Positions 3,513 to 17,742 of a DNA stretch of 64,000 bases are shown here, piece after piece. A program made the translations under genes and the position numbers. How positions within the stretch are numbered: the stretch's first letter is position 1; every line of letters begins with the position of its first letter. Where the stretch lies: assembly GCA_018333395.1 (NCBI GenBank), contig JAGXSQ010000117.1, positions 4,348 to 68,347 of the forward strand. Reading direction: 5' to 3'. The notes under the pieces are model-generated. The model made no database searches, had not been told where the DNA came from, and was given only the letters and a program-made list of their open reading frames with translations. The stretch is from Dethiobacter sp. Lineage in GTDB: Bacteria > Bacillota_D > Dethiobacteria > Dethiobacterales > Dethiobacteraceae.

Positions 3513-5513
3513 TCAGGAATTCACTAATTCGTCGGAAGACCGTAAACCACATTTTTTTAATTTACGGTAGAGGGTGGTACGGGCGATATTTAATTCCTTT
3601 GCGACTTTGGATAAATTTCCGTTGTGTTTTTTTAATAGTTCAATGAGTCGTTTCTTTTCATCTCCGGCTTCGAAAGTGATTATTTCTTGCGGGCTTTGTC
3701 CTTTAGGCTGTTTACACCGCTTAATTTCGTCGGGGACCACATCAACGGTAAGAGTGTCAGTTTTTAGCGTGTTAACGATCCTTTCCATGATGTTTTGTAA
3801 TTGTCTTACGTTACCGGGCCAGTCGCAGGAAAGAAAGATGTCCATTACTTCAGGTGAAATGCGGTTGATAACTTTTTGTTGCTGATCCGCTATTTTTTGC
3901 ATGAAATACTCAGCCAATTCCATAATATCTTCTTTTCTGTCCCTCAGAGGGAGTATGTTGATAGTCAGCACGTTTAGCCTGTAAAAGAGGTCATCTCTGA
4001 AGTTGCCTCTGCTGGCTTCGTGCCATAGGTTCTTGTTGGTGGCAGAAATAATTCTAACGTCTACCGGTATGGAATCGCCGCTGCCAATGCGCATGATTCT
4101 TTTTTCTTCAAGAACCCGAAGGAGGACAGACTGCAATTCTAGAGGCATATCTCCTATTTCATCCAGGAAAAGAGTGCCTCCGTCAGCAAGCTCGAATTTT
4201 CCTGGATTACCGCCTTTTTTGGCACCAGTAAACGCGCCTTCGGCATAACCAAACAACTCGCTGCCAATTAAATCGCGTGGAATTCCGGAGCAGTTTATGG
4301 CCAGGAAGGGGCCTTCTCCCCGCTGGCTGCTATTGTGTATGGCCTGAGCAAACATTTCCTTGCCGGTACCGCTCTCGCCCAGGATTAGCACGTTGGATGA
4401 ACTTTGTGCCGCATCTCTGGCGAGTTCTATCGATTGCCGGAACTTTTCGTTTTTGCCAATTAAATTGTCAAAGGTGAAATGAGCCTGACTGCGCAAAATC
4501 TGTTGCAGTAATTTTCGGGTTCTTTTTAATTCACTAAGCAGCAGCACTTTTCCGTGATTCTCATCGTGGTCGGCTGTTATTTGGCGTGAGGTAACGGTGC
4601 ACTGGACTTTTTGGTGCGAAAAAAGGTTATAGATACTGATTTGCTGATCTGTAACTTCTTCTTTTTGCATGATTACTTTTTTTAGAAGGCTATTTTGCGG
4701 ACCAAGCACATGATGGATGTCTTGGTGAAGTGCTCTGCTTTCGCTGAAACCAAGTAAATGGCAACAAACATTGTTTACTTGAGTTATTTCACTTTTTTCG
4801 TTAACGGCAATTATTCCTTCTGCTATAGAGTCAATGATTTTTGCTTTCTGAGCGTTGGCAACCTCACAGCACATCCAGGCATTTCTGAGCGCCAATTCAT
4901 TCTCAATGGCGTACACTGCCGCATAAACCATGCCAAGCGTATGGCTGTGTACGTTCTCGTAAAGGCCGGTCAAACAGAGCACGCCGCTAATTTTATTATC
5001 AGTTGGACTAGTAATGGGTGAAGCGGAGCAAGTCCACCTGTGTGAACACTTGCAGTAATGTTCGTGGGCGAAAACTTGTAAGGGACTACCGGCTACGAGG
5101 GCAGTACCGATAGCATTAGTGCCGGCAGATCGTTCGCTCCAGTTTGCACCGGGTCTAAAGTTACCTTTCTGCGAGGCTAGGACTATTTCAGGGTCACCTA
5201 TAATTTTCAGGAGATAGCCTTCCTTATCTGCCAACGAGACGATGAAGCCGGATCCGGAAACAAAATGGTAGAGCTTTTCCATGATGGGGAGAGCAATATT
5301 TATCAATTCCTGATTTGCTGCGCCCTTTTCATCAAGCTCTTGAAAACTAATAACTTCTTCAACCTGAATCTGATGAGGGATAACCCCCCACTTTCTGCAT
5401 CTTTCCCAGGAATCCAGAATAATCTGCCTGACTTCACCGGGCAGGACTTGTTTTGTGGCAGTGTACTCTTGCCAAATTCTTTTTAACGTTTCTTGTCGGT
5501 CTGATACTAGCAT
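3513..5513 (-). CDS. Sigma-54-dependent transcriptional activator, AcoR-like
   Basis: Bacterial enhancer-binding protein of 666 residues. The N-terminal part (about 60-220) is a GAF-type sensor with the GANWSERSAGTNAIGTAL signature seen in AcoR-like regulators. A PAS-like segment follows (about 225-300). The AAA+ sigma-54 interaction domain has Walker A GESGTGKE near residue 380, the sigma-54 contact loop GAFTGA near 425, and Walker B GGTLFLDEIGD. A Fis-type helix-turn-helix (GNLSKVAKELNIARTTLYRKL) ends the protein. It diverges from the CoA-transferase operon, and a sigma-54 promoter plus tandem palindromes lie between them, so it very likely controls that operon. The ligand cannot be read from sequence; a short-chain acid or its CoA ester is a reasonable inference. 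AAAGGGG lies 6 bases before the ATG. Confidence 0.93.
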   Translation of the reverse strand: MLVSDRQETLKRIWQEYTATKQVLPGEVRQIILDSWERCRKWGVIPHQIQVEEVISFQELDEKGAANQELINIALPIMEKLYHFVSGSGFIVSLADKEGYLLKIIGDPEIVLASQKGNFRPGANWSERSAGTNAIGTALVAGSPLQVFAHEHYCKCSHRWTCSASPITSPTDNKISGVLCLTGLYENVHSHTLGMVYAAVYAIENELALRNAWMCCEVANAQKAKIIDSIAEGIIAVNEKSEITQVNNVCCHLLGFSESRALHQDIHHVLGPQNSLLKKVIMQKEEVTDQQISIYNLFSHQKVQCTVTSRQITADHDENHGKVLLLSELKRTRKLLQQILRSQAHFTFDNLIGKNEKFRQSIELARDAAQSSSNVLILGESGTGKEMFAQAIHNSSQRGEGPFLAINCSGIPRDLIGSELFGYAEGAFTGAKKGGNPGKFELADGGTLFLDEIGDMPLELQSVLLRVLEEKRIMRIGSGDSIPVDVRIISATNKNLWHEASRGNFRDDLFYRLNVLTINILPLRDRKEDIMELAEYFMQKIADQQQKVINRISPEVMDIFLSCDWPGNVRQLQNIMERIVNTLKTDTLTVDVVPDEIKRCKQPKGQSPQEIITFEAGDEKKRLIELLKKHNGNLSKVAKELNIARTTLYRKLKKCGLRSSDELVNS

Positions 5514-5528
5514 GGCAGACCCCTTTCC

Positions 5529-5570
5529 TGTAGCGCTACAGCGTAGCGATCGCTACACTGTAGCGCTACA
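5529..5570. promoter_or_regulatory. Triple palindrome, candidate enhancer for the sigma-54 activator
   Basis: Three palindromes in tandem: TGTAGCGCTACA (5529-5540), GTAGCGATCGCTAC (5543-5556) and TGTAGCGCTACA again (5559-5570). Their centres are exactly 15 bp apart, and the whole 42 bp block is itself an inverted repeat about 5549/5550 with one mismatched pair (5542/5557). It begins 16 bp upstream of the activator ATG and ends about 115 bp upstream of the -24 element of the facing operon, the usual place for an upstream activating sequence. Its closeness to the activator gene also suggests autoregulation. Binding by the AcoR-like protein is inferred. The rest of the 5514-5841 gap holds an 8-G run (5637-5644), the -24/-12 promoter and an A+T-rich leader; no gene is seen in it. 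Confidence 0.8.
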
Positions 5571-5683
5571 CATTAGGTTGAAAAGGCAAAAAGTTGTGCT
5601 CTTCAGTTAGAGGCGATGGCAAAGTAGCATTAAAAAGGGGGGGGCAGGGCGTTTTCTATGAGAATGTTTCACCGCATTAATTA

Positions 5684-5700
5684 TTGGCACGTATTTTGCA
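5684..5700 (+). promoter_or_regulatory. Sigma-54 (-24/-12) promoter of the CoA-transferase operon
   Basis: TTGGCACG-TATT-TTGCA matches the sigma-54 consensus at every key base. The invariant GG is at 5686-5687 and the GC at 5698-5699, separated by exactly 10 bases. The predicted start is near 5711, giving a leader of about 130 nt before the ATG at 5842. GAGGAGAG just before that ATG is the ribosome site. Confidence 0.9.
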
Positions 5701-5841
5701 ATAGCAATTTGTAACAAATCATAAGGTGTTGAAAACATTATAAAACACATTATCAAGAAGTGTAAAGCATAAGATTTGCGAATCGCTGCAAAACGATACA
5801 TTTTCCGGAATGGAGAAAATCTGATGTGAGGAGAGAGTGCG

Positions 5842-6762
5842 ATGCCTGATTCCCCTGGAAGAAAAAGAACAGACAAGACAATGTCATTAGCGGAAGCGTT
5901 TAATTTGTTTATTAATAAGGGTGACAGCATTGCCTTCAGCGGCATGGGAGGTTCCCAGTGTGTCGCTCATACCTATGAACTTATTCGTCTCGGGTATAGT
6001 GGTATGACGCTTTTCGGAGATAGTCCCTGTGAGGCTGGTGATATGTTAATAGGTGCCGGAATTATAGACAGGGTTGAACTAGCGTGGTGCTCTTATGCGG
6101 TGGCGGGACTTGGCCATAACTATCGCCGGGCAGTGGAAGAAAATATTCCCGCAAAGATTGAAGTAAAAGAGTTTTCGAACTATACAATGGGCCTTCGTTT
6201 TTTAGCTGGGGCTATGAATTTACCGTTTTTGCCGACTAAATCGCTGCTAGGGTCAGCTTTGCCAACCTATAATGCGGATATCAAAGAGATAAAGTGTCCT
6301 TACACAGGTGATAAACTGGCACTAGTCCCTGCTGCTACGCCTGATGTGGCCGTGATACATGTTTCACGTGCTGATAAACGTGGTAATTGCCAGAACCTTG
6401 GCTTTACATCTAATGCGGAAAACATCGGGCGGGCAGCCAAGAGAACTGTAGTCACCTGCGAAGAACTGGTAAGCACTGATGAGATTAGACGTAACGCTAA
6501 TCTGACTTTTCTGCCCGAGTATTGTGTAGATGCAGTAATAGAGTTGCCTTTTGCTTCCCACCCCTGGAATTTTCCTTACTCCTATGCTTATGATATTCCC
6601 TTTCACGCACAGCAAATGGAGGCTTTCCGGACCAGAGAAGGTTTCGTAAAATGGTTGGATGAATGGTGTTTTGAAGCTGGCAGCTGGGACGGTTACTTAA
6701 AGAAAGTAGGTTGGGAGAGGCTTTTCAAGCTGCAGAAGATAGAAAAGCGTTTTTGTAAATGA
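5842..6762 (+). CDS. CoA-transferase subunit A, glutaconate CoA-transferase-like
   Basis: First gene of the sigma-54 operon; 306 residues resembling the alpha subunit of glutaconate CoA-transferase (GctA) and related class I enzymes. The N-terminus carries the glycine-rich GDSIAFSGMGGSQ segment of the CoA-transferase fold. The middle has the PDVAVIHVSRADKRGN motif typical of this family, where the subunit helps bind the CoA ester. It pairs with the next gene, which carries the catalytic glutamate. Expected role: move CoA from a donor such as acetyl-CoA to an incoming short-chain acid. Given the dehydratase downstream, 4-hydroxybutyrate is the most attractive acceptor, but specificity cannot be read from sequence. 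GAGGAGAGAG precedes the ATG. Confidence 0.88.
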   Translation: MPDSPGRKRTDKTMSLAEAFNLFINKGDSIAFSGMGGSQCVAHTYELIRLGYSGMTLFGDSPCEAGDMLIGAGIIDRVELAWCSYAVAGLGHNYRRAVEENIPAKIEVKEFSNYTMGLRFLAGAMNLPFLPTKSLLGSALPTYNADIKEIKCPYTGDKLALVPAATPDVAVIHVSRADKRGNCQNLGFTSNAENIGRAAKRTVVTCEELVSTDEIRRNANLTFLPEYCVDAVIELPFASHPWNFPYSYAYDIPFHAQQMEAFRTREGFVKWLDEWCFEAGSWDGYLKKVGWERLFKLQKIEKRFCK

Positions 6763-6792
6763 TAGTGGAGCGATTAAGGAAGGGGGAGAAAT

Positions 6793-7683
6793 ATGGGTTA
6801 TGCCAGCGATTACACACTTGCTGAATTGTTAGTGGCCACAGCGGCTAGGGAGATAAAAGACGGCGATGTTGTTTTTGTCGGGGTGGGCATTCCCGGTTTA
6901 GGGGCCGGGTTGGCTAAGCTGACGCATGCGCCGAATATGATTATGGCCATGGAGTGTGGCAGTATTGGCTCTCAATCTTATAGGCTGGTTCTTGGCATCG
7001 GTGACAATGCTTGTGTGGAAAATGCCATCTGCAACACTTCGCTCTGGCGGCTTTTTTCAGACCAACAGAGAGGTTATTTTGATGTCGGGATGATATCAGG
7101 CGCCCAAGTAGATAAGTATGGAAACCTAAACAGCACCACAATCATCGGTAACCGTAGCTATCAGCAACCAAAGACTAGGTTGCCCGGCAGCGGTGGCGCC
7201 AACGATATTGCCAGTTCGGCACGTAAAACAATATTAATGATTAATATGCAGGCGCGCCGCTTTATGGAGAGAGTCGATTACATTACCTCGCCGGGTTATC
7301 TGGATGGCTACGAGGCGCGCGAAAAAGCTGGCCTGCTGGGAGGAGGCCCCGAGGCTATTATTACCGATAAGTGCCTTATGCGTTTTGACCCTGTTACAAA
7401 AGAAGCTTTTGTGGCAAGTGTGCATCCGGGGGCCACGATGGAAGAGATAAAGTCACTGGTGAGCTGGGACTTAAAGTTCAGCCCAGATTTGCAGGAGACA
7501 GAGCCCCCCACGGATGAACAGGTCAGAGTAACAAGGACACTTGATTCAGAAGGTATTTACTTGAGGGGTGGCCTCAAAGGATTAACCTTCGACAGATATA
7601 TGGCGATGTTGGAGAATTCCAGGGATGTTTTGTCAAAGGTGTTTATGAAGAAGTTATATAGTGGAGATGAAGACCAATGTTAA
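6793..7683 (+). CDS. CoA-transferase subunit B, catalytic
   Basis: Catalytic partner of the preceding subunit; 296 residues. MECGSIG places a glutamate at residue 54, the position of the active-site Glu54 of the glutaconate CoA-transferase beta subunit, which forms the glutamyl-CoA thioester. The VFVGVGIPGLGAG segment and the LPGSGGANDIAS oxyanion/CoA-binding motif are also present. An intact glutamate argues for true transferase activity, unlike IpdAB-type ring-cleaving relatives. The gene follows subunit A by 30 bases with AGGAAGGGGGAGAA as ribosome site, and its end overlaps the SDR gene by 7 bases, showing translational coupling. Confidence 0.9.
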   Translation: MGYASDYTLAELLVATAAREIKDGDVVFVGVGIPGLGAGLAKLTHAPNMIMAMECGSIGSQSYRLVLGIGDNACVENAICNTSLWRLFSDQQRGYFDVGMISGAQVDKYGNLNSTTIIGNRSYQQPKTRLPGSGGANDIASSARKTILMINMQARRFMERVDYITSPGYLDGYEAREKAGLLGGGPEAIITDKCLMRFDPVTKEAFVASVHPGATMEEIKSLVSWDLKFSPDLQETEPPTDEQVRVTRTLDSEGIYLRGGLKGLTFDRYMAMLENSRDVLSKVFMKKLYSGDEDQC

Positions 7684-8438
7684 CAGATTTTTCGCTAACG
7701 GGTAGGGTTGCTATAGTTACCGGCGCTACAAAAGGCCTTGGGCGAGGGATAGCCCACGGCCTGGCAGAAGCAGGGGCAAAACTTGTGGTAGTTAGCCGCA
7801 ATCAGAAAGAGTGTGACGCCGTGGCTTTGGAGTTGCAAGAAAAAGGTGTGTCGTCGCTAGCTTACGCCGCTGACCTGCGCAATCTCGCTTCTATTCAAGC
7901 TCTTGTCGAGGCAGTGGTTAAGCAATTCGGCCGCATTGATATCCTGATCAATAATGCCGGAGCTGCCGTCACAAAACCTCCCGAGGCCATGACGGAAGAG
8001 GAATGGGATTTTGTTATGGATCTAAATCTGAAGGGGGCCTTTTTCACGGCTCAACAGGTAGGCTCGCAAATGATTAAGCAGCAGTACGGAAAAATCATTA
8101 ATATCGGATCCATCTTCAGCTTTGTGGGAGATGCCAATATAGTTTCTTACTGCGCCAGCAAGGGAGGACTTGTCCAAATGACAAGGTCGCTGGCCTTAGC
8201 TTGGGCGCGCCATAATATCAGCGTAAATGCCATAGCTCCAGGCTATATCACAACTGAATTGAATAAGGAAACGCTAAACGAGGGAAAAGTATTTAACCAT
8301 CTTATGAAGAATACACCTGCCAGAAGGTTAGGGGAAGTAAAGGATGTAGTAGGAGCCGCAGTATTCCTCGCTTCATCAGCTTCTGACTATATGACTGGGC
8401 AAAGTATCGTAATTGATGGCGGTTGGTTGGCGCACTAG
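7677..8438 (+). CDS. SDR-family dehydrogenase/reductase
   Basis: Classical short-chain dehydrogenase of 253 residues. It has the nucleotide-binding motif TGATKGLGRG near the N-terminus, the structural NNAG motif, and the catalytic set Ser145, Tyr158 and Lys162 (SYCASK). The C-terminal GQSIVIDGGW is also typical. Overall likeness is to gluconate-5-dehydrogenase/FabG-type enzymes, whose substrates vary widely. In this operon it might oxidise a hydroxy acid (for example 3-hydroxybutyrate to acetoacetate, which the nearby acetoacetyl-CoA synthetase could use) or interconvert 4-hydroxybutyrate and its semialdehyde. These are inferences from context. Confidence 0.9.
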   Translation: MLTDFSLTGRVAIVTGATKGLGRGIAHGLAEAGAKLVVVSRNQKECDAVALELQEKGVSSLAYAADLRNLASIQALVEAVVKQFGRIDILINNAGAAVTKPPEAMTEEEWDFVMDLNLKGAFFTAQQVGSQMIKQQYGKIINIGSIFSFVGDANIVSYCASKGGLVQMTRSLALAWARHNISVNAIAPGYITTELNKETLNEGKVFNHLMKNTPARRLGEVKDVVGAAVFLASSASDYMTGQSIVIDGGWLAH

Positions 8439-8475
8439 CGGATGTTGTAAAAATAAATAACTGAGAGGAAGTGCT

Positions 8476-9930
8476 TTGAAAATGATGACAGGTAAGGAAT
8501 ATATTGATAGTTTGCGGCAGTTGAAAACGGTTGTTTACGCGTTCGGGGAAAAGTTGGATAATATTGTGGACCATCCATTAATCAAGCCCCATGTTAATGC
8601 GGCAGCAACTACTTATGAAATGGCGCATGACCCGGAGTTTGAAGACTTGGTAACGGCCACTTCGCATCTGACCGGAGAAAAAGTCAGTCGCTTTACCCAT
8701 ATCCATCACAGCACAGATGACCTTATCAAGAAAGTAAAAATGCTGCGGGCTATCGCACAGCGTACCGGTTCCTGCTACCAGCGCTGTGTAGGTTTTGACG
8801 GTATTAACGCCCTTTATGCTACTACTTATGAAATAGATCAGAAGTATGGCACCAACTACCATGAAAGAATGAAAGACTTCGTTAAATACCTGCAAAAGAC
8901 GGATAAAATGGTCGCTGGTTCCATGACTGATCCGAAAGGTGATAGGGGGTTATCTCCAGGTAAGCAGACTGATCCTGACATGTACGTACGTGTTGTGGAG
9001 AAGAACGAAAAAGGTATTGTCATCCGCGGAGCTAAGGCACACCAGACAGGTGTCGTTAATTCTCACGAAATGCTGATTATGCCCACCATTGCTTTGGATG
9101 AAACAGAGAAGGATTATGCTGTGGCTTGCGCTATCCCAGTGGACGCCCCTGGTGTATTGCATATCTTTGGCCGGCAGACTAATGACACTCGCAAATTTGA
9201 TGAAATGGACCAAGGCAATGCTTGCTTCGGAGCGGTAGGCGGAGAGGCGCTGACCGTACTGGAAGATGTTTTTGTACCATGGGAGCGGGTGTTTATGTGC
9301 GGTGAATACGATTTTGCCGGCATGATGGTGGAGCGTTTCGCCTGCTACCACCGTCAGAACTACGGCGGATGCAAAGGCGGTGTTAGCGATATTCTCATAG
9401 GCGCCACAGCGGCCATGGCAGAAATGAATGGAGTGGCGAAAGCTTCGCATATTAGGGATAAAATTGTCGAGATGATTCACCTGGCGGAAACAATTTACTG
9501 TGGCTCAGTAGCTTGCTCCAGCCAGGGAAGGCCGCTACCGTGTGGTTCATACTTTGTAGACCCGCTGCTCGCCAACGTCACAAAACTTAATGTCACCAGA
9601 AATATTTATGAGATCTGTCGCTTGAGTCACGATATCGCCGGAGGCCTCTTGGCTACTACGCCATCGGAACAAGATTTAAACCACCCTGAGGTTGGTAAGT
9701 ACGTGGAGAAGTACAGCAAAGGAGTGGATTCTGTGCCCGCTATCGAGCGCCTGCGCATGGCAAGGTTGCTGGAAAACATGACAGGTGGTACAGCACTTGT
9801 GGAGAGCATGCATGGAGCCGGTTCACCTCAGGCGCAACGTGTAATGATACTTCGCCAAGGTAATCTTGCGCATAAAGTTAAAATGGCCAAAAGGCTGGCC
9901 AGCCGTGATCGATCGGGCAATGAAAGATAA
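8476..9930 (+). CDS. abfD: 4-hydroxybutyryl-CoA dehydratase / vinylacetyl-CoA isomerase
   Basis: Oxygen-sensitive FAD and [4Fe-4S] enzyme that dehydrates 4-hydroxybutyryl-CoA to crotonyl-CoA; 484 residues, the usual length, in the 4-hydroxyphenylacetate 3-hydroxylase superfamily. The cluster ligands known from Clostridium aminobutyricum (Cys99, Cys103, His292, Cys299) are matched by Cys100 and Cys104 (GSCYQRCVG) and by His292 and Cys299 (YHRQNYGGCKGG). Their presence separates it from the oxygen-dependent hydroxylase relatives. The start is taken as TTG at 8476, 5 bases after GAGAGGAAG; ATG at 8482 is the alternative. This gene gives the island its strongest functional clue: use of 4-hydroxybutyrate or a close analogue. 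Confidence 0.92.
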   Translation: MKMMTGKEYIDSLRQLKTVVYAFGEKLDNIVDHPLIKPHVNAAATTYEMAHDPEFEDLVTATSHLTGEKVSRFTHIHHSTDDLIKKVKMLRAIAQRTGSCYQRCVGFDGINALYATTYEIDQKYGTNYHERMKDFVKYLQKTDKMVAGSMTDPKGDRGLSPGKQTDPDMYVRVVEKNEKGIVIRGAKAHQTGVVNSHEMLIMPTIALDETEKDYAVACAIPVDAPGVLHIFGRQTNDTRKFDEMDQGNACFGAVGGEALTVLEDVFVPWERVFMCGEYDFAGMMVERFACYHRQNYGGCKGGVSDILIGATAAMAEMNGVAKASHIRDKIVEMIHLAETIYCGSVACSSQGRPLPCGSYFVDPLLANVTKLNVTRNIYEICRLSHDIAGGLLATTPSEQDLNHPEVGKYVEKYSKGVDSVPAIERLRMARLLENMTGGTALVESMHGAGSPQAQRVMILRQGNLAHKVKMAKRLASRDRSGNER

Positions 9931-9938
9931 CCTTTTTA

Positions 9939-10271
9939 ATGATGGCTATGAAGATGCCTGCTAAAATAGCCGTCAAATTCTGCGGGAACTGCAACCCGCA
10001 AATATCCTGCGGAGAAATCTTAAAAGAGATAAAAACTAAAGCCGCGAGTAGGTTGCCGGCGGCGGAGTTTGTATCTTGGGACTCCCCGGAGACAGATGTA
10101 TTACTGGTAATCAGCGGCTGTCCTGTGGATTGTGCCGCTAGGCCTCAGGGTAGCGCTGAGGAAATTGTTGTGGCCGGCGAGTCGGTTAACACTGTTGGTT
10201 GTGGAGCAGACCAAATAAGCAAGCGCGTGCTTGATATTCTACAGCGCCTAATGGCTGGGAGGGAGAAATAA
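9939..10271 (+). CDS. Small cysteine-rich protein of unknown function
   Basis: Not recognised. The 110-residue product has six cysteines in paired motifs: Cys15 and Cys18 in FCGNCNP, Cys24, Cys61 and Cys65 in SGCPVDCA, and Cys88. The spacing does not match a ferredoxin CxxCxxCxxxCP. An alternating strand/helix pattern suggests a small thioredoxin-like or [2Fe-2S]-like fold, but that is inference. There is no signal peptide or membrane segment. It lies 8 bases after the dehydratase stop and directly abuts the thiolase, so it is co-expressed with them. A role as redox carrier, metal-cluster donor or subunit for the iron-sulfur dehydratase is possible. The ATG at 9939 has a weak ribosome site; ATGs at 9942, 9948 and 9954 are alternatives. 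Confidence 0.75.
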   Translation: MMAMKMPAKIAVKFCGNCNPQISCGEILKEIKTKAASRLPAAEFVSWDSPETDVLLVISGCPVDCAARPQGSAEEIVVAGESVNTVGCGADQISKRVLDILQRLMAGREK

Positions 10272-11453
10272 TTGGGTAAAGAGATTGTGATTATTGACGG
10301 TTGCCGTTCACCTATCGGCGATTTTGGCGGGGCGTTCAAAGAGTTCTTGCCGTCTAATCTTGCTGTTCCCGTGGTGCAGGCCTTAATGGAGAAAACAGGC
10401 GTGGATAAAGCGCTGGTTGAAGAAATAATACTCGGCCAGTGCCTCCAGCGGACTGACGACGCCAATACTGCCCGGGTGGTGGCGCTGAAGGCTGGGTTCC
10501 CCAAAGAAACTACCGGAGTTACTGTGCAGAGGCAGTGCAGTTCTGCGATGCAGGCCATTATTCAAGGATATCATGAGTTATATCACGGTGATGTAGACAT
10601 GGTTATCGCAGGCGGTGTGGAAGTAATGAGTTCTTCGCCTTATGTGCTAAAAGCCGCTCGTTGGGGACAGCGCCTGCAGCACGGCGGCATGCATGACACC
10701 GTCTGGGAAATACTGACTGACCCGGTGGCTAACATTATGATGGGTGTGACTGCAGAAAATCTGGCGGAGAAATATGGGATTACCCGGGATGAACAGGATG
10801 AAGTAGCTTTCCAGAGCCATGCTAAGGCCATAAAAGCTGCCAAAGAGGGACTTTTCAGCGAAGAAATTGTGCCCATTTCTGTGCCTAGAGGCAAAAAAGC
10901 GCCGCTAGTAGTTGATAAGGATGAGCACCCGCGTGAAGATATTGACAGGGAAAAGCTGGCCCAGTTGCCGGCCGCTTTTCGCAAAGACGGTACAGTTACC
11001 GCGGGTAATGCTTCCGGAATTAATGACGGAGCGGCAGCGGTACTGATGACGACGGCGGAACGCGCCCGGCAACTCGGGTTAGAGCCCATGGGCAGGATAA
11101 TATCTTTTGCCTGGGCGGGTGTGGAGCCGGAGTTAATGGGCTACGGCCCTGTGCCGGCGACGAAAAAAGCCTTGCAAAGAGCAGGATTAACCATTGATGA
11201 TATGGAGCTGATCGAGGTTAACGAAGCCTTTGCCGCTCAATACCTGGCCTGTGAAAAGTTATTGGGGTTGAACAGGCAAATAACTAATGTTAATGGCAGC
11301 GGTATAGGCTTGGGACATCCAGTCGGCTGCACAGGAACGCGTATTGTGGTTACATTATTGCACGAAATGGCTAGGCGCAGTCTCCGCTACGGCCTAGCTA
11401 CTCTCTGTGTCGGCGGCGGGATGGGAGTGTCTTTGATTGTGGAAAGAACTTAA
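10272..11453 (+). CDS. Acetyl-CoA acetyltransferase (thiolase)
   Basis: Biosynthetic/degradative thiolase of 393 residues that interconverts acetoacetyl-CoA plus CoA with two acetyl-CoA. The acylated cysteine is Cys89 (RQCSSAM). The NEAFAAQ loop, His349 (GLGHPVG) and the proton-donor Cys379 (LCVGGGMG) complete the active site. The start is TTG at 10272, directly after the TAA of the small cysteine-rich gene, with GGGAGGGAG as ribosome site. In the pathway it would release two acetyl-CoA as the final step. Confidence 0.95.
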   Translation: MGKEIVIIDGCRSPIGDFGGAFKEFLPSNLAVPVVQALMEKTGVDKALVEEIILGQCLQRTDDANTARVVALKAGFPKETTGVTVQRQCSSAMQAIIQGYHELYHGDVDMVIAGGVEVMSSSPYVLKAARWGQRLQHGGMHDTVWEILTDPVANIMMGVTAENLAEKYGITRDEQDEVAFQSHAKAIKAAKEGLFSEEIVPISVPRGKKAPLVVDKDEHPREDIDREKLAQLPAAFRKDGTVTAGNASGINDGAAAVLMTTAERARQLGLEPMGRIISFAWAGVEPELMGYGPVPATKKALQRAGLTIDDMELIEVNEAFAAQYLACEKLLGLNRQITNVNGSGIGLGHPVGCTGTRIVVTLLHEMARRSLRYGLATLCVGGGMGVSLIVERT

Positions 11454-11477
11454 AAGTAGGCACGGGAGGGGATTAGT

Positions 11478-12338
11478 ATGGAGATAAAAACTATTGGGGT
11501 TGTCGGTAGCGGTTTGATGGGCAGTGGTATTGCGCAGGTAGCCTTGCAGGCCGGATACAAAGTGATTCTAAATGATGTTAAAGAAGAATTTATTAGCAAG
11601 GGCATTAGTATAATGCGGAATAATTTGCACCGGGACATAAAAAAAGGCCGGAAAACTGCTGAGGAAATGGAGCAGATGCTATCCTGCCTAGCCACAACCA
11701 CGGAGCTTTCTGATCTGTCAATCGCGGACTTGGTTATTGAAGCTGTATTTGAGCGGATGGAGGTCAAAAAACAGCTCTTTGCCGCTCTTTGTAAAATCTG
11801 CAAGTCCGATACCTGCCTTATTTCGAACACCTCTGGACTTAGTATTACGGAAATCGCTTCCGCGACAAAAAGGTCTGATAAGGTGGTGGGGTTGCACTTT
11901 TTTAACCCGGTCCCCTTAATGAAGCTTGTAGAGGTCATCAGAGCTTATGACACCTCAGATGAAACGTTTGACATGGCTTGGGACCTTTCCATCAAACTTG
12001 GCAAGGAACCGATAGCCGTGCAGGACGCTCCTCTCTTCGCTGTCAACAGGATACTGGTTCCCATGATTAATGAAGCAATCCTTGTTTTGTCGGAAGGTAT
12101 AGCCACCGCCGAGGATATCGATAAAGGGCTGAGGCTTGGCGCAAGCCACCCCATGGGCCCCTTGGCGTTAGCCGATTTAATCGGGCTCGATACTCTGCTC
12201 ATGGTTCAGGAGACGCTCTATAAAGAAACCGCAGACTCCAAATACCGCCCCGCATTGCTGTTAAAACAACTAGTAAGAGCAGGTCATTACGGCCGCAAGA
12301 CGGGACGAGGCTTTTACAACTATGAAGTGATTATGTAG
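11478..12338 (+). CDS. 3-hydroxybutyryl-CoA dehydrogenase
   Basis: NAD(P)-dependent 3-hydroxyacyl-CoA dehydrogenase of 286 residues, the monofunctional clostridial Hbd/MmgB type. The N-terminal Rossmann motif is [14 protein letters not shown]. The [14 protein letters not shown] motif holds the catalytic His140, and the C-terminal all-helical dimerisation domain ends [11 protein letters not shown]. It would oxidise 3-hydroxybutyryl-CoA to acetoacetyl-CoA for the thiolase encoded just upstream. The enoyl-CoA hydratase that would make its substrate from crotonyl-CoA is not in the window. GGGAGGGGA lies about 6 bases before the ATG. Confidence 0.95.
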
Positions 12339-12501
12339 CCTAGGGAAGCCATACTCTGATTGGAGCATATACAAGTCAAGAGCAGAAAGGGGGTGGAATT
12401 ATAAGAATTATAAATAGACTGAATATTTCGCCAGAAGGTTGTGGTGCTTTTGGGGTTTGAGGAGGATTGTTGCCGGCTCAGTAAACGCCAAACAAATTAC
12501 T

Positions 12502-12536
12502 AGGGGAGGTGAAAGCAGGCTTTTGCCTGCGGCACA
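12502..12536 (+). promoter_or_regulatory. Ribosome site separated from the start codon by a hairpin
   Basis: The only good Shine-Dalgarno for the permease is AGGGGAGGT (12502-12510), 26 bases before the ATG at 12537 and so too far for normal initiation. Between them is a perfect small stem, GCAGGC (12515-12520) and GCCTGC (12525-12530), with a TTTT loop. Folding this 16-base hairpin leaves about 10 bases of effective spacing. An in-frame TGA (12510-12512) rules out a more upstream start. Phage T4 gene 38 is a known case of such bridging. The 12339-12501 stretch before it holds no gene I can support. Confidence 0.6.
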
Positions 12537-13886
12537 ATGATCAATTCATTAGCTAAACCATTTGTTCGTTTTGTGGAAAGGTATTATCCAGACCCGTACA
12601 TTTTTGCGTTACTGCTTACTTTCCTAGCGTATATCATGGCTTTTCTCTTTACAGATACTACGTTTATTGGTGCTGTTACGGCCTGGGGCGGCGGTTTTGC
12701 CGGTTTAATGGCCTTTATCGCCCAAGTGGGTTTTACTTTGCTTTCCAGCTCGGCTCTTGCTAATACGCGTCCTGTTAAAAGGTTCTTGCAAAAAATTGCG
12801 GGCCTGCCTAACAGTGCGGCGACCTCTTATGCTTTGGCAGCCTTTGTGACGGCTATTGCCAGCTTGATTGCCTGGGCGCTGGGATTAATCGCGGGGGGCA
12901 TTTTGGCGCGTCACATCCAGTACCAAGCTCAAAAGAAGGGGATTAAGGTTCACTATCCCCTGCTCGTAGCGGCAGCTTATTCCGGCTTTGTGATCTGGCA
13001 TATGGGCTACTCCGGCAGTGCCCAATTAATGGTGGCCACGCCAGGTCATGCCATGGAAGCCTTGATCGGCATCATCCCTGTCTCCGCTACTCTTTTCGCG
13101 GGTTATAATTTGTTAGGAATAGTTTTCCTGGTCATCACACTCCCGATATTGGCGGCTTTAATGAAACCCAAGGACTCGGACAGGATTGTCGAGCTTTCTG
13201 ATGAGGTGATGGCTCAAATTACGGAAGAAGGTCACGCCGCTACAGCCAAAGAAGCTCCACCCGCAACTTTTGGCGAAAAACTGGAGAGAATGCGGTGGAT
13301 TAACATTGTTGCCGGCGCCCTGATGGCCATATTTCTGTTCAACCATTTCTCTAATAGGGGAATGGACTTGAATTTGAACATCGTGAACTGGTCATTTCTG
13401 ACCCTCGGGCTGCTCCTGTCGAATTCACCTATTCACTATGTGGGATTGATCAATGCAGCCGCAAAAAACGTCGGACCGATACTGCTGCAGTATCCTTTTT
13501 ATGCGGGCTTGATGGGCCTGATGGGAGGCACCGGCTTGGTCAAGGTCTTGTCGGAGTGGTTTATAGTCGTGGCCAACGCGGAAACGCTGCCGGTCTTTGC
13601 GTTCTGGTCAGCAGGCATATTGAATATGTTTATTCCCTCCGGCGGTGGTCAGTGGGCGGTCCAGGGCCCGATAATGCTTGGGGCGGCAAGCTCCTTAGGG
13701 GTAAGTCCGGCCGTTATTGTCAATGCTGTGGCTTACGGTGACCAGTGGACAAACATGATTCAACCTTTTTGGTCCATTCCCCTCCTGGCAGTTGCGGGTC
13801 TTAAAATGCGTGACATGATGGGGTACTGTTTTATTACGCTGATCTATACCGGTGTGGTTTTTTCAGTATTGTTGCTCATAGCTTGA
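12537..13886 (+). CDS. atoE: Short-chain fatty acid permease, AtoE family
   Basis: Polytopic inner-membrane transporter of 449 residues with roughly a dozen hydrophobic segments; resembles AtoE, which carries short-chain fatty acids such as acetoacetate and butyrate. Characteristic stretches include FVERYYPDPYIFALLLTF at the N-terminus, GYSGSAQLMVATPGH in the middle and IPSGGGQWAVQGP near the C-terminus. As last gene of the sigma-54 operon it is the expected entry route for the acid that the CoA-transferase or acetoacetyl-CoA synthetase activates. Its translation start is unusual because a hairpin separates it from the ribosome site. Confidence 0.93.
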   Translation: MINSLAKPFVRFVERYYPDPYIFALLLTFLAYIMAFLFTDTTFIGAVTAWGGGFAGLMAFIAQVGFTLLSSSALANTRPVKRFLQKIAGLPNSAATSYALAAFVTAIASLIAWALGLIAGGILARHIQYQAQKKGIKVHYPLLVAAAYSGFVIWHMGYSGSAQLMVATPGHAMEALIGIIPVSATLFAGYNLLGIVFLVITLPILAALMKPKDSDRIVELSDEVMAQITEEGHAATAKEAPPATFGEKLERMRWINIVAGALMAIFLFNHFSNRGMDLNLNIVNWSFLTLGLLLSNSPIHYVGLINAAAKNVGPILLQYPFYAGLMGLMGGTGLVKVLSEWFIVVANAETLPVFAFWSAGILNMFIPSGGGQWAVQGPIMLGAASSLGVSPAVIVNAVAYGDQWTNMIQPFWSIPLLAVAGLKMRDMMGYCFITLIYTGVVFSVLLLIA

Positions 13887-13905
13887 GAGTTGTGTCTCTA
13901 AGTCA

Positions 13906-13946
13906 GGACGACGGCGGACCTTTCATGAAAAGCTCCGCCGTCGTCC
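13906..13946 (+). terminator. Strong hairpin after the permease gene
   Basis: A perfect 13 bp G+C-rich stem (13906-13918 with 13934-13946) closes a 15-base loop that itself contains the palindrome TTTCATGAAA. The T-run after it is weak (GGTTTATTTT), so it may end the operon inefficiently or protect the 3' end. The sigma-54 promoter for the next gene begins about 25 bases later. Confidence 0.6.
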
Positions 13947-13972
13947 CATATGGGGGTTTATTTTAAGTTTTT

Positions 13973-13988
13973 TGGCATAAATATTGCA
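13973..13988 (+). promoter_or_regulatory. Second sigma-54 promoter, for acetoacetyl-CoA synthetase
   Basis: TGGCA-TAAATA-TTGCA has the invariant GG at 13974-13975 and GC at 13986-13987, separated by exactly 10 bases. The predicted start near 13999 gives a short leader with AGGAGGT at 14011-14017. No copy of the TGTAGCGCTACA element was found just upstream, so the enhancer used here is unclear. Confidence 0.8.
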
Positions 13989-14025
13989 AAAAAGAGGGTG
14001 AAACATCACAAGGAGGTTTTAGCCT

Positions 14026-15978
14026 TTGAAAAAGCCGCTTTGGACGCCTAATGCCGAGCGTAAGTCCCGGGCCAACATGACCGGCTTCATCAGCTTGGTC
14101 AATGAAAAGTTCAGCAAAAATTTTGCGGACTATGACGAGCTTTACAACTGGTCTGTTGACCATAGCGCTGATTTCTGGCCGCTGATGTGGCAGTTTGGGG
14201 AAATAATCGCTTCCCGTCCTTACACTAGTGTGGTCAAAAATTTCGCTGATATGTTTAACAGCGAATGGTTTGAAGGGGCGAGGCTGAATTTTGCCGAAAA
14301 CCTGCTGCGTTACCGGGACGAACGGACGGCCCTGGTCTTTAAAGGAGAAGCTGCGCCGCCCAGACGAATGACTTACCGCGAGCTGTATAACGAAGTAGCG
14401 CGCTTGAGCCGCGCTTTACGTGCCGCCGGTGTGACGGCAGGAGACCGGGTGGCGGGCTTTATGCCCAATATGATTGAGACGGTGGCGGCGATGCTCGCTA
14501 CAGCCAGTATTGGCGCGATCTGGTCGTCGTGTTCTCCTGATTTCGGGTTCCAGGGAGTGATGGATCGTTTCGGGCAGATCCAGCCCAAAGTGTTGTTCTG
14601 TGCCAACGGCTACTCTTACAATGGCAAAAATTTTGACTCACTCGCTAAGGCACGGCAAATTACGGAGGAAATTCCTGCTATTGAAAAGGTCGTGGTGGTC
14701 CCTTACACTGAAGCAGCACCGGACCTGGGCGGCATCAGAGGAGCGCTCATGTACAGTGATTTTTTGGGGAAAGAGAACGCGCCGGAAATAGAATTTGCTC
14801 AGCTTCCTTTCGAGCATCCTTTGTATATTATGTACTCGTCAGGCACCACGGGCGTGCCAAAGTGCATCGTCCACGGTGCCGGCGGAACACTAATTCAGCA
14901 TCTCAAAGAACTAATCCTGCACTCCGACCTGACGCGGCAAGATACCATTTTCTACTTTACTACCTGCGGCTGGATGATGTGGAACTGGCTCGTCAGCTCT
15001 CTGGCGGTAGGTGCCACGATTGTTCTCTTTGACGGATCTCCTTTTTACCCTGATGCGGGGGCGCTTTTACAACTGGCGCAGGATGAAAGAATCACCGTTT
15101 TTGGTACCAGCGCTAGGTATCTCGCTTCGGCAGAACAAGCCGGAGTCAGGGCAAAGGATAAGTATGATCTAACGCCGCTGAAGACCATCCTTTCTACCGG
15201 TTCACCGCTGACGGTAGAAAGTTTCCGCTATGTCTACCGTGAGATTAAAGAGGACGTCTGTCTTTCGTCTATCTCCGGCGGCACAGATATTATCTCCTGT
15301 TTTGCCCTGGGGAATCCTATTGCTCCCGTTTATGAGGGCGAGCTACAGTGCCGCGGCCTAGGGATGAAAGTGCAGGCGTTTGACTTGGCAGGACGGCCGG
15401 TTGTCGGTGAGAAAGGTGAGCTGGTTTGCTCAGAACCCTTCCCGTCTATGCCGATTTATTTCTGGAATGACCCGGAGGACAAGAAATACCTAGGCGCCTA
15501 TTTTGAGACTTTCAAAAATGTCTGGCACCATGGCGATTATGTAGAATTGACCGACACAGGGGGCATGATTATTTACGGGCGATCTGATGCTACACTGAAC
15601 CCCGGCGGGGTCAGAATCGGCACATCAGAAATCTATCGCCAGTTGGAAGCTGTTCCGGAGGTGCTTGATAGCCTCGTAATAGGTCAGGAGTGGCGCACTG
15701 ACGAGCGCGTCATTCTCTTTGTCAAACTAGCACCTGGCCTTGAACTGACCGAAGAGTTGAAAAGCAGCATTAAGGCTACCATCAGGAAGCACACCACACC
15801 CCGTCATGTGCCGGAAAAAATTCTGGCCATTGACGATATTCCCTATACTATCAACGGCAAGAAAGTGGAGATGGCGGTAAAGAAAGTTATCCACGGGCAG
15901 GAGGTCCTCAACAGAGACGCGTTAGCCAATCCTCAGGCACTGGAACTTTACCGGGATCTGCCGGAGCTGAGCACATAA
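14026..15978 (+). CDS. Acetoacetyl-CoA synthetase
   Basis: ATP-dependent ligase of 650 residues (acetoacetate + ATP + CoA to acetoacetyl-CoA + AMP + PPi). The length and the WFEGARLNFAENLL segment are typical of AacS rather than acetyl-CoA synthetase. The adenylate-forming core has YSSGTTGVPKCIVH, the GGTDI motif, and the hinge region YGRSDATLNPGGVRIG. The catalytic lysine lies in TINGKKVE near the C-terminus. It starts with TTG at 14026, 8 bases after AGGAGGT. It has its own sigma-54 promoter, so acetoacetate activation can be added to the upstream CoA-transfer pathway, sharing its permease and thiolase. Confidence 0.93.
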   Translation: MKKPLWTPNAERKSRANMTGFISLVNEKFSKNFADYDELYNWSVDHSADFWPLMWQFGEIIASRPYTSVVKNFADMFNSEWFEGARLNFAENLLRYRDERTALVFKGEAAPPRRMTYRELYNEVARLSRALRAAGVTAGDRVAGFMPNMIETVAAMLATASIGAIWSSCSPDFGFQGVMDRFGQIQPKVLFCANGYSYNGKNFDSLAKARQITEEIPAIEKVVVVPYTEAAPDLGGIRGALMYSDFLGKENAPEIEFAQLPFEHPLYIMYSSGTTGVPKCIVHGAGGTLIQHLKELILHSDLTRQDTIFYFTTCGWMMWNWLVSSLAVGATIVLFDGSPFYPDAGALLQLAQDERITVFGTSARYLASAEQAGVRAKDKYDLTPLKTILSTGSPLTVESFRYVYREIKEDVCLSSISGGTDIISCFALGNPIAPVYEGELQCRGLGMKVQAFDLAGRPVVGEKGELVCSEPFPSMPIYFWNDPEDKKYLGAYFETFKNVWHHGDYVELTDTGGMIIYGRSDATLNPGGVRIGTSEIYRQLEAVPEVLDSLVIGQEWRTDERVILFVKLAPGLELTEELKSSIKATIRKHTTPRHVPEKILAIDDIPYTINGKKVEMAVKKVIHGQEVLNRDALANPQALELYRDLPELST

Positions 15979-16075: not shown

Positions 16076-16137
16076 GTCGGCATTAAGACATTTTCAAAGC
16101 AACGGCCGAGTAAAGATATTTGATAGGAGGGGGTGTT

Positions 16138-17730
16138 GTGTGGTTCAAGGCCATGACTGTCGTTTTGTGTCTCATTCTGCTGGCACTTTGCGGGTGTAGC
16201 GCAAAGGATGAACAAGCGGAGCGGCAGAGCCTGCATGTGGCGGCGCTGAGTAACCCGTTGACGCTGAACCCTCTGTTTGTGCGGGAGGCCGCTTCTGCGG
16301 AGGTGAGCTACCTGTTGCACTCGCCGCTTTTATTTACCGACCCGGAGACATTGGATGTTAGGCCGGGAATCGTTTCTGCTTGGGAAATCGGAAATGACGG
16401 CCGTACTTATACCCTGACTATGCGGGAAGACGTTTTCTGGTCGGATGGAGAGCCTGTTACGGCAGAGGATGTGGCCTTTACGTTACGGGTCATTTGTCAC
16501 CCTGACTACACGGGCTGGATGTTTCTTTTCGCCAGTAGTATAGAGGGAGCGTCAGCCTACCGGGATGGACACCGCTCTCCCTTTGCTGACGGGGAAATCG
16601 CCGGCCTGCGGGTGCTTGGCGACTATGCCCTGGAAATTAGGCTGGCAGAAACATTTGCGCCATTTTTATCGCATCTTGCTTTAGCGCCTCTGCCTTTCCA
16701 CCTGCTTGGCAGTGTTCCCGTGACAGAACTTGAAGGTCATGCCTATTCTCGTGAGGCTCACGTAGTAAACGGACCTTTCCGATTAGCAAATTGGCGGCCG
16801 GAAGAGTACCTGCATTTCCAGGCCAACCTGTACTATTTTCTGGGCCAGCCCAAAATCAGGGATATCTTCTACCGCATTATTCCGAGCCAGGAAACGCAGA
16901 TGATGGAGTTTTTGGCGGGCAGGCTGGATTTGTTGCCTACTGTGGTCAGGGTGGAGGATGTTGCTCTGCTACAGGCCGATCCGGATGTTGCCGTTTATCA
17001 AAACAGGCGGCTGGCTTACGATTACCTGGGTTTTAATCTGAGAAACGGCCATACTGCCTTGTCTGATCGTCGGGTAAGGCAGGCGCTTTCTCTGGTGCTT
17101 GACCGGCAGAAAATTGTGGAGAACCTGCTCTTGGGGCACGGGCAAGTAGCCAGCGGCCCGCTGCTACCGCTGCACTTTGCTTATGAACCCGGTCAGCTTG
17201 AGCTGCAACCTGACCGGGTGAAGGCCGGAAAATTGCTCCGGGAGGCCGACGTTTTGCCGCTTAATCTAAAACTTATTTACAATGCCGGCAACGCTGTGCG
17301 TGAAAATGTGGCCCTGTTCTTTAAGGACCAGGCGGCCACTGTTGGGGTGACTGTGCAAGTGGTGGTGCTGGAGTGGGAGGCTTTTCTTTCCGCACTGCGT
17401 GATGGTGCATACGACCTAGTTATTTTGGGGCGCGGTGCAGATCCTGACCCGGACCTTTCTTATCACTGGCATTCGCGGGGTCCGGGGAACCGGTTGGGGT
17501 ACGTCAACCGGCAGGTAGATGCGCTGCTGGAGGCTGGAAACGCTACTTTAGACCGCCGGGAAAGGACGCGCCTCTATCGGGAGGCACAGCGGCTGATTCT
17601 GGAAGATGTGCCCATGATCTGGCTGTATTCCCGGCCGGCCATCCATGCTGCTACGTCTAGGCTGAAAAATTTTCTTCCGCACCCGGAGACGCCTTTTTAT
17701 CATGTCCACCTGTGGGAGCTTGGCGATTAA
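16138..17730 (+). CDS. ABC transporter substrate-binding lipoprotein (family 5)
   Basis: Extracytoplasmic solute receptor of the peptide/nickel family (SBP_bac_5), 530 residues. A short basic start, hydrophobic core and the lipobox L-C-G-C give a lipoprotein signal, so the mature protein is anchored by the cysteine on the outer face of the membrane. Family features include the early ALSNPLTLNPLF segment and SDGEPVTAEDVAFTL. The start is set at GTG 16138, 4-5 bases after AGGAGGGGG; an earlier in-frame TTG lies before that ribosome site. It heads a complete five-gene importer. The ligand (oligopeptide, dipeptide, nickel or other) cannot be decided from sequence. Confidence 0.92.
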   Translation: MWFKAMTVVLCLILLALCGCSAKDEQAERQSLHVAALSNPLTLNPLFVREAASAEVSYLLHSPLLFTDPETLDVRPGIVSAWEIGNDGRTYTLTMREDVFWSDGEPVTAEDVAFTLRVICHPDYTGWMFLFASSIEGASAYRDGHRSPFADGEIAGLRVLGDYALEIRLAETFAPFLSHLALAPLPFHLLGSVPVTELEGHAYSREAHVVNGPFRLANWRPEEYLHFQANLYYFLGQPKIRDIFYRIIPSQETQMMEFLAGRLDLLPTVVRVEDVALLQADPDVAVYQNRRLAYDYLGFNLRNGHTALSDRRVRQALSLVLDRQKIVENLLLGHGQVASGPLLPLHFAYEPGQLELQPDRVKAGKLLREADVLPLNLKLIYNAGNAVRENVALFFKDQAATVGVTVQVVVLEWEAFLSALRDGAYDLVILGRGADPDPDLSYHWHSRGPGNRLGYVNRQVDALLEAGNATLDRRERTRLYREAQRLILEDVPMIWLYSRPAIHAATSRLKNFLPHPETPFYHVHLWELGD

Positions 17731-17742
17731 GGGGAGAAAGCC

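What the first reader, a model, noticed from the sequence alone, without database searches (positions are those of the whole stretch)
3513..15978. Sigma-54-controlled island combining 4-hydroxybutyrate and acetoacetate catabolism
Sequence shows an AcoR-like activator facing CoA-transferase AB, SDR, 4-hydroxybutyryl-CoA dehydratase, a cysteine-rich protein, thiolase, 3-hydroxybutyryl-CoA dehydrogenase and AtoE, plus a separate acetoacetyl-CoA synthetase, with two canonical -24/-12 promoters. Each family is known. The combination of both entry routes under one sigma-54 regulator, packed between repair and recombination genes, is not an arrangement I know as described. It predicts growth on hydroxybutyrate isomers or acetoacetate.
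Basis: partly seen in the sequence, partly recalled or inferred. Interest (0 to 1): 0.75.

Follow-up and report, generated by a model that had tools for sequence, protein, structure and literature searches.

The report
Switchable gamma-acid degradation gene module
An anaerobic Bacillota bacterium carries a switch-controlled set of genes that probably turns a small gamma-oxo or gamma-hydroxy acid (best guess: levulinate) into acetyl-CoA with an oxygen-sensitive dehydratase and a small unstudied partner protein, and the acetoacetate gene beside it is probably just a neighbour.

Summary
The interpretation changes in three ways.

(1) Acetoacetyl-CoA synthetase is probably not part of the module. 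In the closest relative (dehydratase 89% identical), mutM, this synthetase and dprA-topA lie on one contig with hydrogenase genes in the slot; the module lies on another contig. The synthetase keeps its own sigma-54 promoter there and lacks the module's upstream palindromes.

(2) The rest is a recurring module: AcoR/DhaR-like activator, CoA activation, short-chain dehydrogenase (SDR), a 4-hydroxybutyryl-CoA-dehydratase homologue of a separate clade, small cysteine protein, thiolase. A TGTAGCG half-site lies between activator and operon in 5 of 26 activator loci, the window included.

(3) In the loci read, the small protein (PF27236) sits only inside dehydratase modules; eight database proteins fuse it to the CoA-transferase.

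The conserved SDR is not needed for plain 4-hydroxybutyrate. I therefore favour reduction of a 4-oxoacyl-CoA before dehydration, with levulinate as the likeliest substrate: a sequence-based prediction, untested. Plain 4-hydroxybutyrate use is the main rival, nearly as likely. Sigma-54 control of this dehydratase family in Clostridia is already in print.

The parts
3513..5513 (-). sigma-54 activator, AcoR/DhaR-like (GAF, PAS, AAA+ with GAFTGA, Fis-type HTH)
   Evidence: its 9-row tree group lies beside clade-X dehydratases
5529..5570 (.). putative upstream activating sequence: two perfect TGTAGCGCTACA palindromes and a related one between them (five TGTAGCG half-sites)
   Evidence: half-site in 5 of 26 distinct activator loci, window included
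5685..5700 (+). -24/-12 promoter TGGCACGTATTTTGCA
   Evidence: exact match to consensus; sites with 1-2 mismatches 150-170 bases from the activator gene in L001, L093, L096, L100
5842..6762 (+). CoA-transferase subunit A, glutaconate CoA-transferase-like
   Evidence: 1poi_A 132.7 bits
6793..7683 (+). CoA-transferase subunit B, glutaconate CoA-transferase-like
   Evidence: 1poi_B 156.5 bits
7677..8438 (+). short-chain dehydrogenase/reductase, gluconate-5-dehydrogenase/KduD branch, SRN cofactor motif; overlaps the CoA-transferase B gene by 7 bases
8476..9930 (+). 4-hydroxybutyryl-CoA dehydratase/vinylacetyl-CoA isomerase family enzyme, separate clade ('clade X')
   Evidence: 1u8v 609 bits
9939..10271 (+). 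small protein with four invariant cysteines (PF27236)
   Evidence: fused to CoA-transferase A in other proteins
10272..11453 (+). thiolase
11478..12338 (+). 3-hydroxybutyryl-CoA dehydrogenase
   Evidence: above cut-off NF004474
12537..13886 (+). AtoE-type short-chain fatty acid transporter
   Evidence: also in the modules of L001, L091 and L093
13906..13946 (.). inverted repeat with perfect 13-base G+C-rich arms between the transporter gene and the synthetase promoter (possible end of the module transcript)
   Evidence: not on the terminator list, which asks for a T run
13973..13988 (+). second -24/-12 site, of the neighbouring synthetase; not counted as part of the module
   Evidence: 2 mismatches; TGGCACAAATATTGCA at the same place in the nearest relative (read)
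14026..15978 (+). acetoacetyl-CoA synthetase, neighbour belonging to the mutM-synthetase-dprA frame, probably not a module member

Best explanation
The stretch from 3513 to 13886 is one catabolic module. An AcoR/DhaR-like activator (its ligand is probably the substrate acid; inferred) binds the TGTAGCGCTACA sites and switches on the -24/-12 promoter at 5685 (inferred from sequence and conservation). AtoE brings in a short-chain acid. The GctAB-like CoA-transferase makes its CoA thioester. The SDR reduces a 4-oxoacyl-CoA to the 4-hydroxyacyl-CoA (inferred from its conservation with the dehydratase, its gene overlap with the CoA-transferase and its NADPH-type motif). The clade-X radical [4Fe-4S]/FAD dehydratase removes water to give the enoyl-CoA. 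A hydratase encoded outside the window, 3-hydroxyacyl-CoA dehydrogenase and thiolase then complete the cleavage. The likeliest substrate is levulinate (4-oxopentanoate), giving acetyl-CoA plus propionyl-CoA, overall redox-neutral: one reduction by the SDR, one oxidation by the 3-hydroxyacyl-CoA dehydrogenase. The small four-cysteine protein is probably a dedicated iron-sulfur or redox helper of the dehydratase and CoA-transferase. Acetoacetyl-CoA synthetase is an adjacent, separately promoted gene. Shown here: gene content, recurrence, conserved sites. Inferred: every catalytic step and the substrate.
For: Module recurrence: L001 (transporter, activator, CoA-T A and B, SDR, dehydratase, Cys protein, thiolase, dehydrogenase) and L093 (activator, dehydratase, Cys protein, CoA-T A and B, SDR, AtoE, thiolase); L096 and L100 with a different ligase and an ABC transporter; L091 with a MaoC hydratase and another CoA-transferase type. 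SDR rows at 51-79% identity are in the modules of L001, L002, L093, L096, L100 and L102, above the 47% that the best of 30 listed plasmid SDRs reach. An SDR of the same linkage family lies within nine genes of 17 of 28 clade-X rows (L091 counted twice) and of 1 of 26 rows of other groups. All seven close rows, window included, carry SR after strand 2; its NADPH meaning is recalled knowledge (tropinone reductases). TGTAGCG half-sites lie within 300 bp of the activator gene in 5 of 26 distinct loci, with a -24/-12 site of 0-2 mismatches 150-172 bases from that gene in all five. Dehydratase residues C100/C104, H292, Y296, C299 and K300 align with 1u8v. Precedent: in Pseudomonas, LvaD is an SDR that reduces levulinyl-CoA to 4-hydroxyvaleryl-CoA and LvaR is a sigma-54 activator (passages of PMC6692424 and PMC9399607).
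Against: No sequence evidence names the substrate. The SDR could instead act on a 3-hydroxyacyl-CoA; in the stretches of L096 and L100 no 3-hydroxyacyl-CoA dehydrogenase is labelled. The SDR group has support 92/95, below the program's star. The SR motif is not special to the group: most more distant SDRs in the same alignment have it too. In L091 the SDR is at background identity (46%) and the activator belongs to another tree group without the half-site. Three other members of the window activator's group (L098, L107, L109) lack the half-site. The thiolase is not diagnostic. No dehydratase column separates the eight SDR-type rows from twelve other clade-X rows at the thresholds used. No enoyl-CoA hydratase match better than E 0.45 in the window. 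I could not obtain LvaD to compare. Full-text searches combining the dehydratase, 4-hydroxyvaleryl-CoA or 4-hydroxyvalerate with levulinate or anaerobes gave no supporting paper as far as titles and abstract starts show.
Confidence: 0.4

Rival explanations
1. Plain 4-hydroxybutyrate (or gamma-butyrolactone) catabolism: CoA-transferase, 4-hydroxybutyryl-CoA dehydratase, crotonyl-CoA, acetoacetyl-CoA, two acetyl-CoA. The SDR would be a (R)-3-hydroxyacyl-CoA or semialdehyde dehydrogenase used beside the 3-hydroxybutyryl-CoA dehydrogenase.
For: The dehydratase is 609 bits from the solved 4-hydroxybutyryl-CoA dehydratase, with the aligned active-site residues. C4-type 3-hydroxybutyryl-CoA dehydrogenase and a thiolase whose best solved relative is an acetyl-CoA acetyltransferase. 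In L096 the SDR gene is next but for the small protein to thiolase, with no such dehydrogenase labelled nearby.
Against: The window has a 3-hydroxybutyryl-CoA dehydrogenase already, so the SDR would be redundant. The SDR does not reach the 3-hydroxybutyrate dehydrogenase cut-off (204.4 against 307.05). Clade X has fixed differences from the other group, for example N295 for S beside Y296 (27 against 23 rows). The AbfT-type transferase and iron alcohol dehydrogenase are absent from the window cluster; this is weak, as the former is labelled in 9 of 26 rows of other groups and in 6 of 28 clade-X rows, the latter in 4 of 26.
Confidence: 0.35
2. One reading: one island with two entries (4-hydroxybutyrate and 3-hydroxybutyrate/acetoacetate) under one activator; the SDR would be 3-hydroxybutyrate dehydrogenase and the synthetase would activate acetoacetate.
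For: Genes adjacent and co-directional; AtoE and thiolase fit acetoacetate; both units have sigma-54 promoter sites.
Against: In G001 the synthetase lies between mutM and dprA on a contig without the module. It has no TGTAGCG half-site in its upstream gap in the window or in L130-L132. Seven of ten related genomes searched, some perhaps incomplete, have no synthetase match at E<=1e-100. The SDR is below the PHB_DH cut-off.
Confidence: 0.12
3. The clade-X dehydratase acts on another 4-substituted acyl-CoA (for example one made from a 5-hydroxy- or 5-amino-2-oxo acid by the 2-oxoacid:ferredoxin oxidoreductase found beside it elsewhere), and this module feeds the same intermediate from an external acid.
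For: 2-oxoacid oxidoreductase subunits lie within nine genes of 10 of 28 clade-X rows and of 3 of 26 rows of other groups (families of two subunits). No residue separates the two kinds of clade-X dehydratase at the thresholds used.
Against: No substrate-specific enzyme in the window supports it; the lead is from other genomes only.
Confidence: 0.13

Closest known systems
4-hydroxybutyryl-CoA dehydratase / vinylacetyl-CoA isomerase (AbfD; PDB 1u8v) and the classical AbfD-AbfT 4-hydroxybutyrate route (route recalled)
   Same: Full-length similarity and the aligned cluster-binding and catalytic residues; followed by beta-oxidation enzymes to acetyl-CoA.
   Different: Separate clade with fixed residues; GctAB-type transferase in place of AbfT; SDR and the four-cysteine protein added; no iron alcohol dehydrogenase in the cluster.
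Pseudomonas lva operon (levulinate catabolism; PMC6692424 and PMC9399607, passages read)
   Same: CoA activation, SDR step, sigma-54 activator, then 3-hydroxyacyl-CoA and thiolysis.
   Different: The Pseudomonas route phosphorylates 4-hydroxyvaleryl-CoA (LvaAB) and uses LvaC; here a radical dehydratase would do this, and CoA comes from a transferase, not a ligase.
sigma-54 regulons of Clostridia (PMC12316311, two passages read; PMC6615313, term search only)
   Same: COG2368, the dehydratase family, is listed as sigma-54-regulated primarily in Clostridia; CoA-transferase and thiolase COGs are also listed, the class not shown in the passage.
   Different: In the passages read, no module, operator or partner protein is described; the Clostridiales reconstruction had no hit for the six terms I searched.
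Glutaconate CoA-transferase GctAB (PDB 1poi)
   Same: Best solved relative of both subunits by sequence.
   Different: 156.5 and 132.7 bits only; eight of 120 listed relatives of subunit A are fused to PF27236.

Membership tests
4-hydroxybutyryl-CoA dehydratase family (AbfD) | full-length similarity and conserved [4Fe-4S] ligands and catalytic residues (two Cys of CxxxC, H292, C299, Y296, K300; residue roles recalled) | tested here: met
   alignment to 1u8v, motif positions
4-hydroxybutyryl-CoA dehydratase family (AbfD) | dehydration of 4-hydroxybutyryl-CoA | not testable with these tools
   needs enzyme assay
Classical AbfD-AbfT 4-hydroxybutyrate module | AbfT-type (AcetylCoA_hydro) CoA-transferase and iron alcohol dehydrogenase beside the dehydratase (recalled) | tested here: not met
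   neither among the ten genes of the cluster
3-oxoacid CoA-transferase (PcaIJ/ScoAB) | NCBIfam cut-offs TIGR02429 and TIGR02428 | tested here: not met
   19.8 against 128.5 and 34.8 against 243.55
Glutaconate CoA-transferase-like (GctAB) | closest solved relative and the aligned glutamate of GctB (catalytic role recalled) | tested here: met
sigma-54 enhancer-binding protein, AcoR/DhaR type | GAF, PAS, Sigma54_activat, Fis-type HTH and the GAFTGA loop | tested here: met
DhaR or PrdR equivalog | NCBIfam cut-off | tested here: not met
   412.2 against 551 and 414.7 against 795
Levulinate (lva) operon of Pseudomonas | LvaA/LvaB kinase part and LvaC | tested here: not met
   no phosphotransferase or acyl-CoA dehydrogenase family among the ten genes of the cluster; similarity of function only
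Levulinate (lva) operon of Pseudomonas | SDR orthologous to LvaD | not tested
   LvaD sequence not obtained
3-hydroxybutyrate dehydrogenase (SDR) | NCBIfam TIGR01963 cut-off | tested here: not met
   204.4 against 307.05
Acetoacetyl-CoA synthetase | NCBIfam TIGR01217 cut-off | tested here: met
   931.6 against 520.9

The most novel reading that the evidence does not exclude
An undescribed anaerobic route for levulinate and similar 4-oxo acids: CoA transfer, NADPH-dependent reduction to 4-hydroxyvaleryl-CoA, radical dehydration by a distinct dehydratase clade, then beta-oxidation to acetyl-CoA and propionyl-CoA; with PF27236 as a new class of iron-sulfur helper dedicated to this dehydratase and fused at times to its CoA-transferase.
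Probability: 0.3. Interest if true: 0.75.

Novelty: new variant of a known kind. Interest (0 to 1): 0.5.

Why it matters
If right, it would give anaerobes a route for 4-oxo acids that replaces the ATP-costly phosphorylation route of Pseudomonas by a radical dehydratase, in a redox-neutral fermentation. It would also attach a testable role to a small protein family (PF27236) that, in the loci read, sits only in such modules, and give a conserved operator for an AcoR-like activator. All parts can be expressed and assayed one by one.
Full report
Observation. The ten genes are present at the stated coordinates. From the first CoA-transferase gene to the 3-hydroxyacyl-CoA dehydrogenase gene the gaps are -7 to 37 bases, so this looks like one transcript; AtoE follows after 198 bases and the synthetase after another 139, with a perfect 13-base-arm inverted repeat in that last gap. 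The first -24/-12 site is perfect; the second has two mismatches. With GG and GC required, 6 sites of up to two mismatches exist in the window, and two of them lie in 665 intergenic bases of the cluster, against 0.03 expected at that rate (the bases were picked knowing the sites). The CoA-transferase subunits are nearest to glutaconate CoA-transferase 1poi among solved structures and far below the 3-oxoacid CoA-transferase cut-offs. The dehydratase aligns over its length with 4-hydroxybutyryl-CoA dehydratase 1u8v at 609 bits and with vinylacetyl-CoA isomerase 6vjr at 549.5 bits.

The synthetase is a neighbour. In G001, the genome of L001 with the closest dehydratase (89%), mutM lies at C102:38240-39058 and the synthetase at C102:51764-53710, followed by dprA, topA, xerC, hslV, hslU and codY as in the window; the trmFO gene and the two peptide transporter genes that I tested gave no match there. 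The slot between mutM and the synthetase holds, in the part fetched, an NADH-linked iron hydrogenase set (2Fe-2S_thioredx, Complex1_51K and Fe_hyd_lg_C proteins). The module of G001 is on contig C1. The synthetase keeps a -24/-12 site in G001 (read). No TGTAGCG half-site was found in the roughly 5-kb loci L130-L132 of the synthetases of G001, G125 and G003, nor in the gap before the window's synthetase. Of ten related genomes searched, three have a synthetase match at E<=1e-100.

The module recurs. A tblastn-confirmed scan brought 51 loci. A sample of 398 genomes of the phylum of G001 gave 58 genomes with a dehydratase match at E<=1e-100. I fetched 40 regions (20 and 20), one of them a repeat of L001; lower-ranked places of that table were not fetched. 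My simple gene caller found 92 dehydratase rows; those of L021, L022, L028, L032 and L048 were missed and one of 298 aa was left out. In the tree of 91 rows (89 different) the window dehydratase falls in a group of 29 rows, 28 of them different, which I call clade X. That fork has support 94, just under the star; the 24-row fork inside it has 98; the outermost row, L092_9, is a long branch. Neighbour tables were read for these 28 rows and for 26 rows of other groups; the remaining rows, mostly Desulfobacterota, Chloroflexota and archaea, were not tabulated. An SDR of one linkage family is within nine genes of 17 of the 28 (L091 twice) and of 1 of the 26. SDR rows at 51-79% identity to the window's are in L001, L002, L093, L096, L100 and L102; plasmid KduD-type proteins reach 47.4%, so rows at or about that level (for example L008, L091, L094, L104, L107) are no evidence of orthology. 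L093 joins activator, dehydratase, Cys protein, CoA-transferase A and B, SDR, AtoE and thiolase in another order. L091 does so with an AcetylCoA_hydro-type transferase, a background-level SDR and an activator of another tree group. L096 and L100 use an AMP ligase with the AMP-binding_C_2 domain (tested in L096) and an ABC transporter.

Control sequence. Between activator and operon the window has five TGTAGCG half-sites at 5529-5570. At least one half-site lies within 300 bases of the activator gene in L001 (same as L129), L093, L096 and L100, making 5 of 26 distinct loci with an activator over 400 aa; the other 21 have none. The 21 include three further members of the window activator's 9-row tree group (L098, L107, L109), so the operator is not shared by the whole group. 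In all five a -24/-12 site (0, 2, 1, 1, 1 mismatches) starts 150-172 bases from the near end of the activator gene. In L096 and L100 it falls inside the longest-frame call of the dehydratase gene, whose true start is probably further down.

The small protein. The search returned 26 proteins at E<=0.001, the window's own included, all with precomputed PF27236; the Pfam copy used for scans gave no match. Nine columns are invariant in 31 aligned sequences, four of them cysteines (C15, C18, C61, C65). A profile search of 92 loci, 1,462,984 bases, gave 32 hits in 31 loci, L001 and L129 being the same place. In 29 loci the hit lies on the same strand within 400 bases behind a dehydratase gene, and in two (L096, L100) behind the SDR gene. 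The loci were chosen for the dehydratase, so what this shows is that no copy sits elsewhere within them. 19 of 28 clade-X rows and 10 of 64 other rows (one of these the L001 duplicate) have an adjacent copy. Eight of the 120 listed relatives of CoA-transferase subunit A (of 414 found) carry PF27236 and CoA_trans in one protein; the six that I read begin with the CGxCNP motif. A NifU-domain protein lies next to the dehydratase in L111 (same linkage family in L116 and L119), which makes an iron-sulfur role for the neighbouring small protein plausible. That is inference.

Enzyme steps. 27 clade-X rows (L092_9 left out) differ from 23 of the 26 rows of the other groups at fixed positions (H39/S, N295/S and S344/G at 100% in both sets, and others). 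N295 stands between ligand H292 and Y296 of the 1u8v numbering. The SDR shows SR after the second strand in all seven close rows, but so do most of the more distant rows aligned; the Y-x-x-x-K catalytic pair is present. Among the 25 of 235 NCBIfam matches shown, it passes only the loose glucose 1-dehydrogenase subfamily cut-off; gluconate 5-dehydrogenase scores highest (273.3 against 279) and the 3-hydroxybutyrate dehydrogenase model is not reached. Enoyl-CoA hydratase was not found in the window (four queries, best E 0.45), though crotonase or MaoC genes occur in sister modules (L002, L091, L104).

Interpretation. The SDR is conserved with the dehydratase and coupled to the CoA-transferase gene, and the module has its own 3-hydroxyacyl-CoA dehydrogenase. 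A reductase step before dehydration explains this best. A 4-oxoacyl-CoA is then the intermediate, and levulinate is the simplest external acid that gives one. The passages read on Pseudomonas show the same logic with other dehydration chemistry. Reduction and oxidation cancel in number (NADPH in, NADH out), so levulinate plus water would give acetate and propionate. This arithmetic is mine. Plain 4-hydroxybutyrate use remains nearly as likely.

Literature. The searches showed no paper that links this dehydratase family to levulinate or describes such a module; for all but the four papers named above only listings (titles and abstract starts, at times not all hits) were seen. PMC12316311 (two passages) states that COG2368 is sigma-54-regulated primarily in Clostridia, so that part is not new. 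PMC6615313 was only searched for six terms, none of which occurs. The library lacks most subscription papers.

Noticed in passing
L003, L007, L008, L041, L097, L098, L103, L104, L105, L108: Subunits of a 2-oxoacid:ferredoxin oxidoreductase lie within nine genes of the clade-X dehydratase in 10 of 28 rows (3 of 26 in other groups), in none of the ten with a labelled CoA-transferase. This suggests a route in which a 5-hydroxy- (or 5-amino-) 2-oxo acid is decarboxylated straight to the 4-substituted butyryl-CoA. L098 adds an FAA_hydrolase-family and an enolase-superfamily protein, as in sugar-acid dehydration.
   Followed up: partly
P0042, P0052, P0057, P0058, P0059, P0066, P0073, P0113: Natural fusions of the small cysteine protein (PF27236) to CoA-transferase subunit A.
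   Followed up: partly
L111:10798-11112: NifU-domain protein directly behind a dehydratase of another group; same linkage family in L116 and L119.
   Followed up: partly
window 16120-21446: A peptide-type ABC transporter set (read from translations) lies between the synthetase and dprA in the window; in G001 dprA follows the synthetase directly.
   Followed up: partly
L105:1-11048: polA and mutM also lie upstream of a clade-X dehydratase module in another genome (G042), with other genes between; chance or a shared insertion region.
   Followed up: no
L002:396-1898: A second, more distant dehydratase homologue (500 aa, 52% identical) two genes upstream of the clade-X one; L091 also has two.
   Followed up: no
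L003:7099-8217: Glu/Leu/Phe/Val-type amino acid dehydrogenase between the 2-oxoacid oxidoreductase and the dehydratase, hinting at an amino acid substrate there.
   Followed up: no
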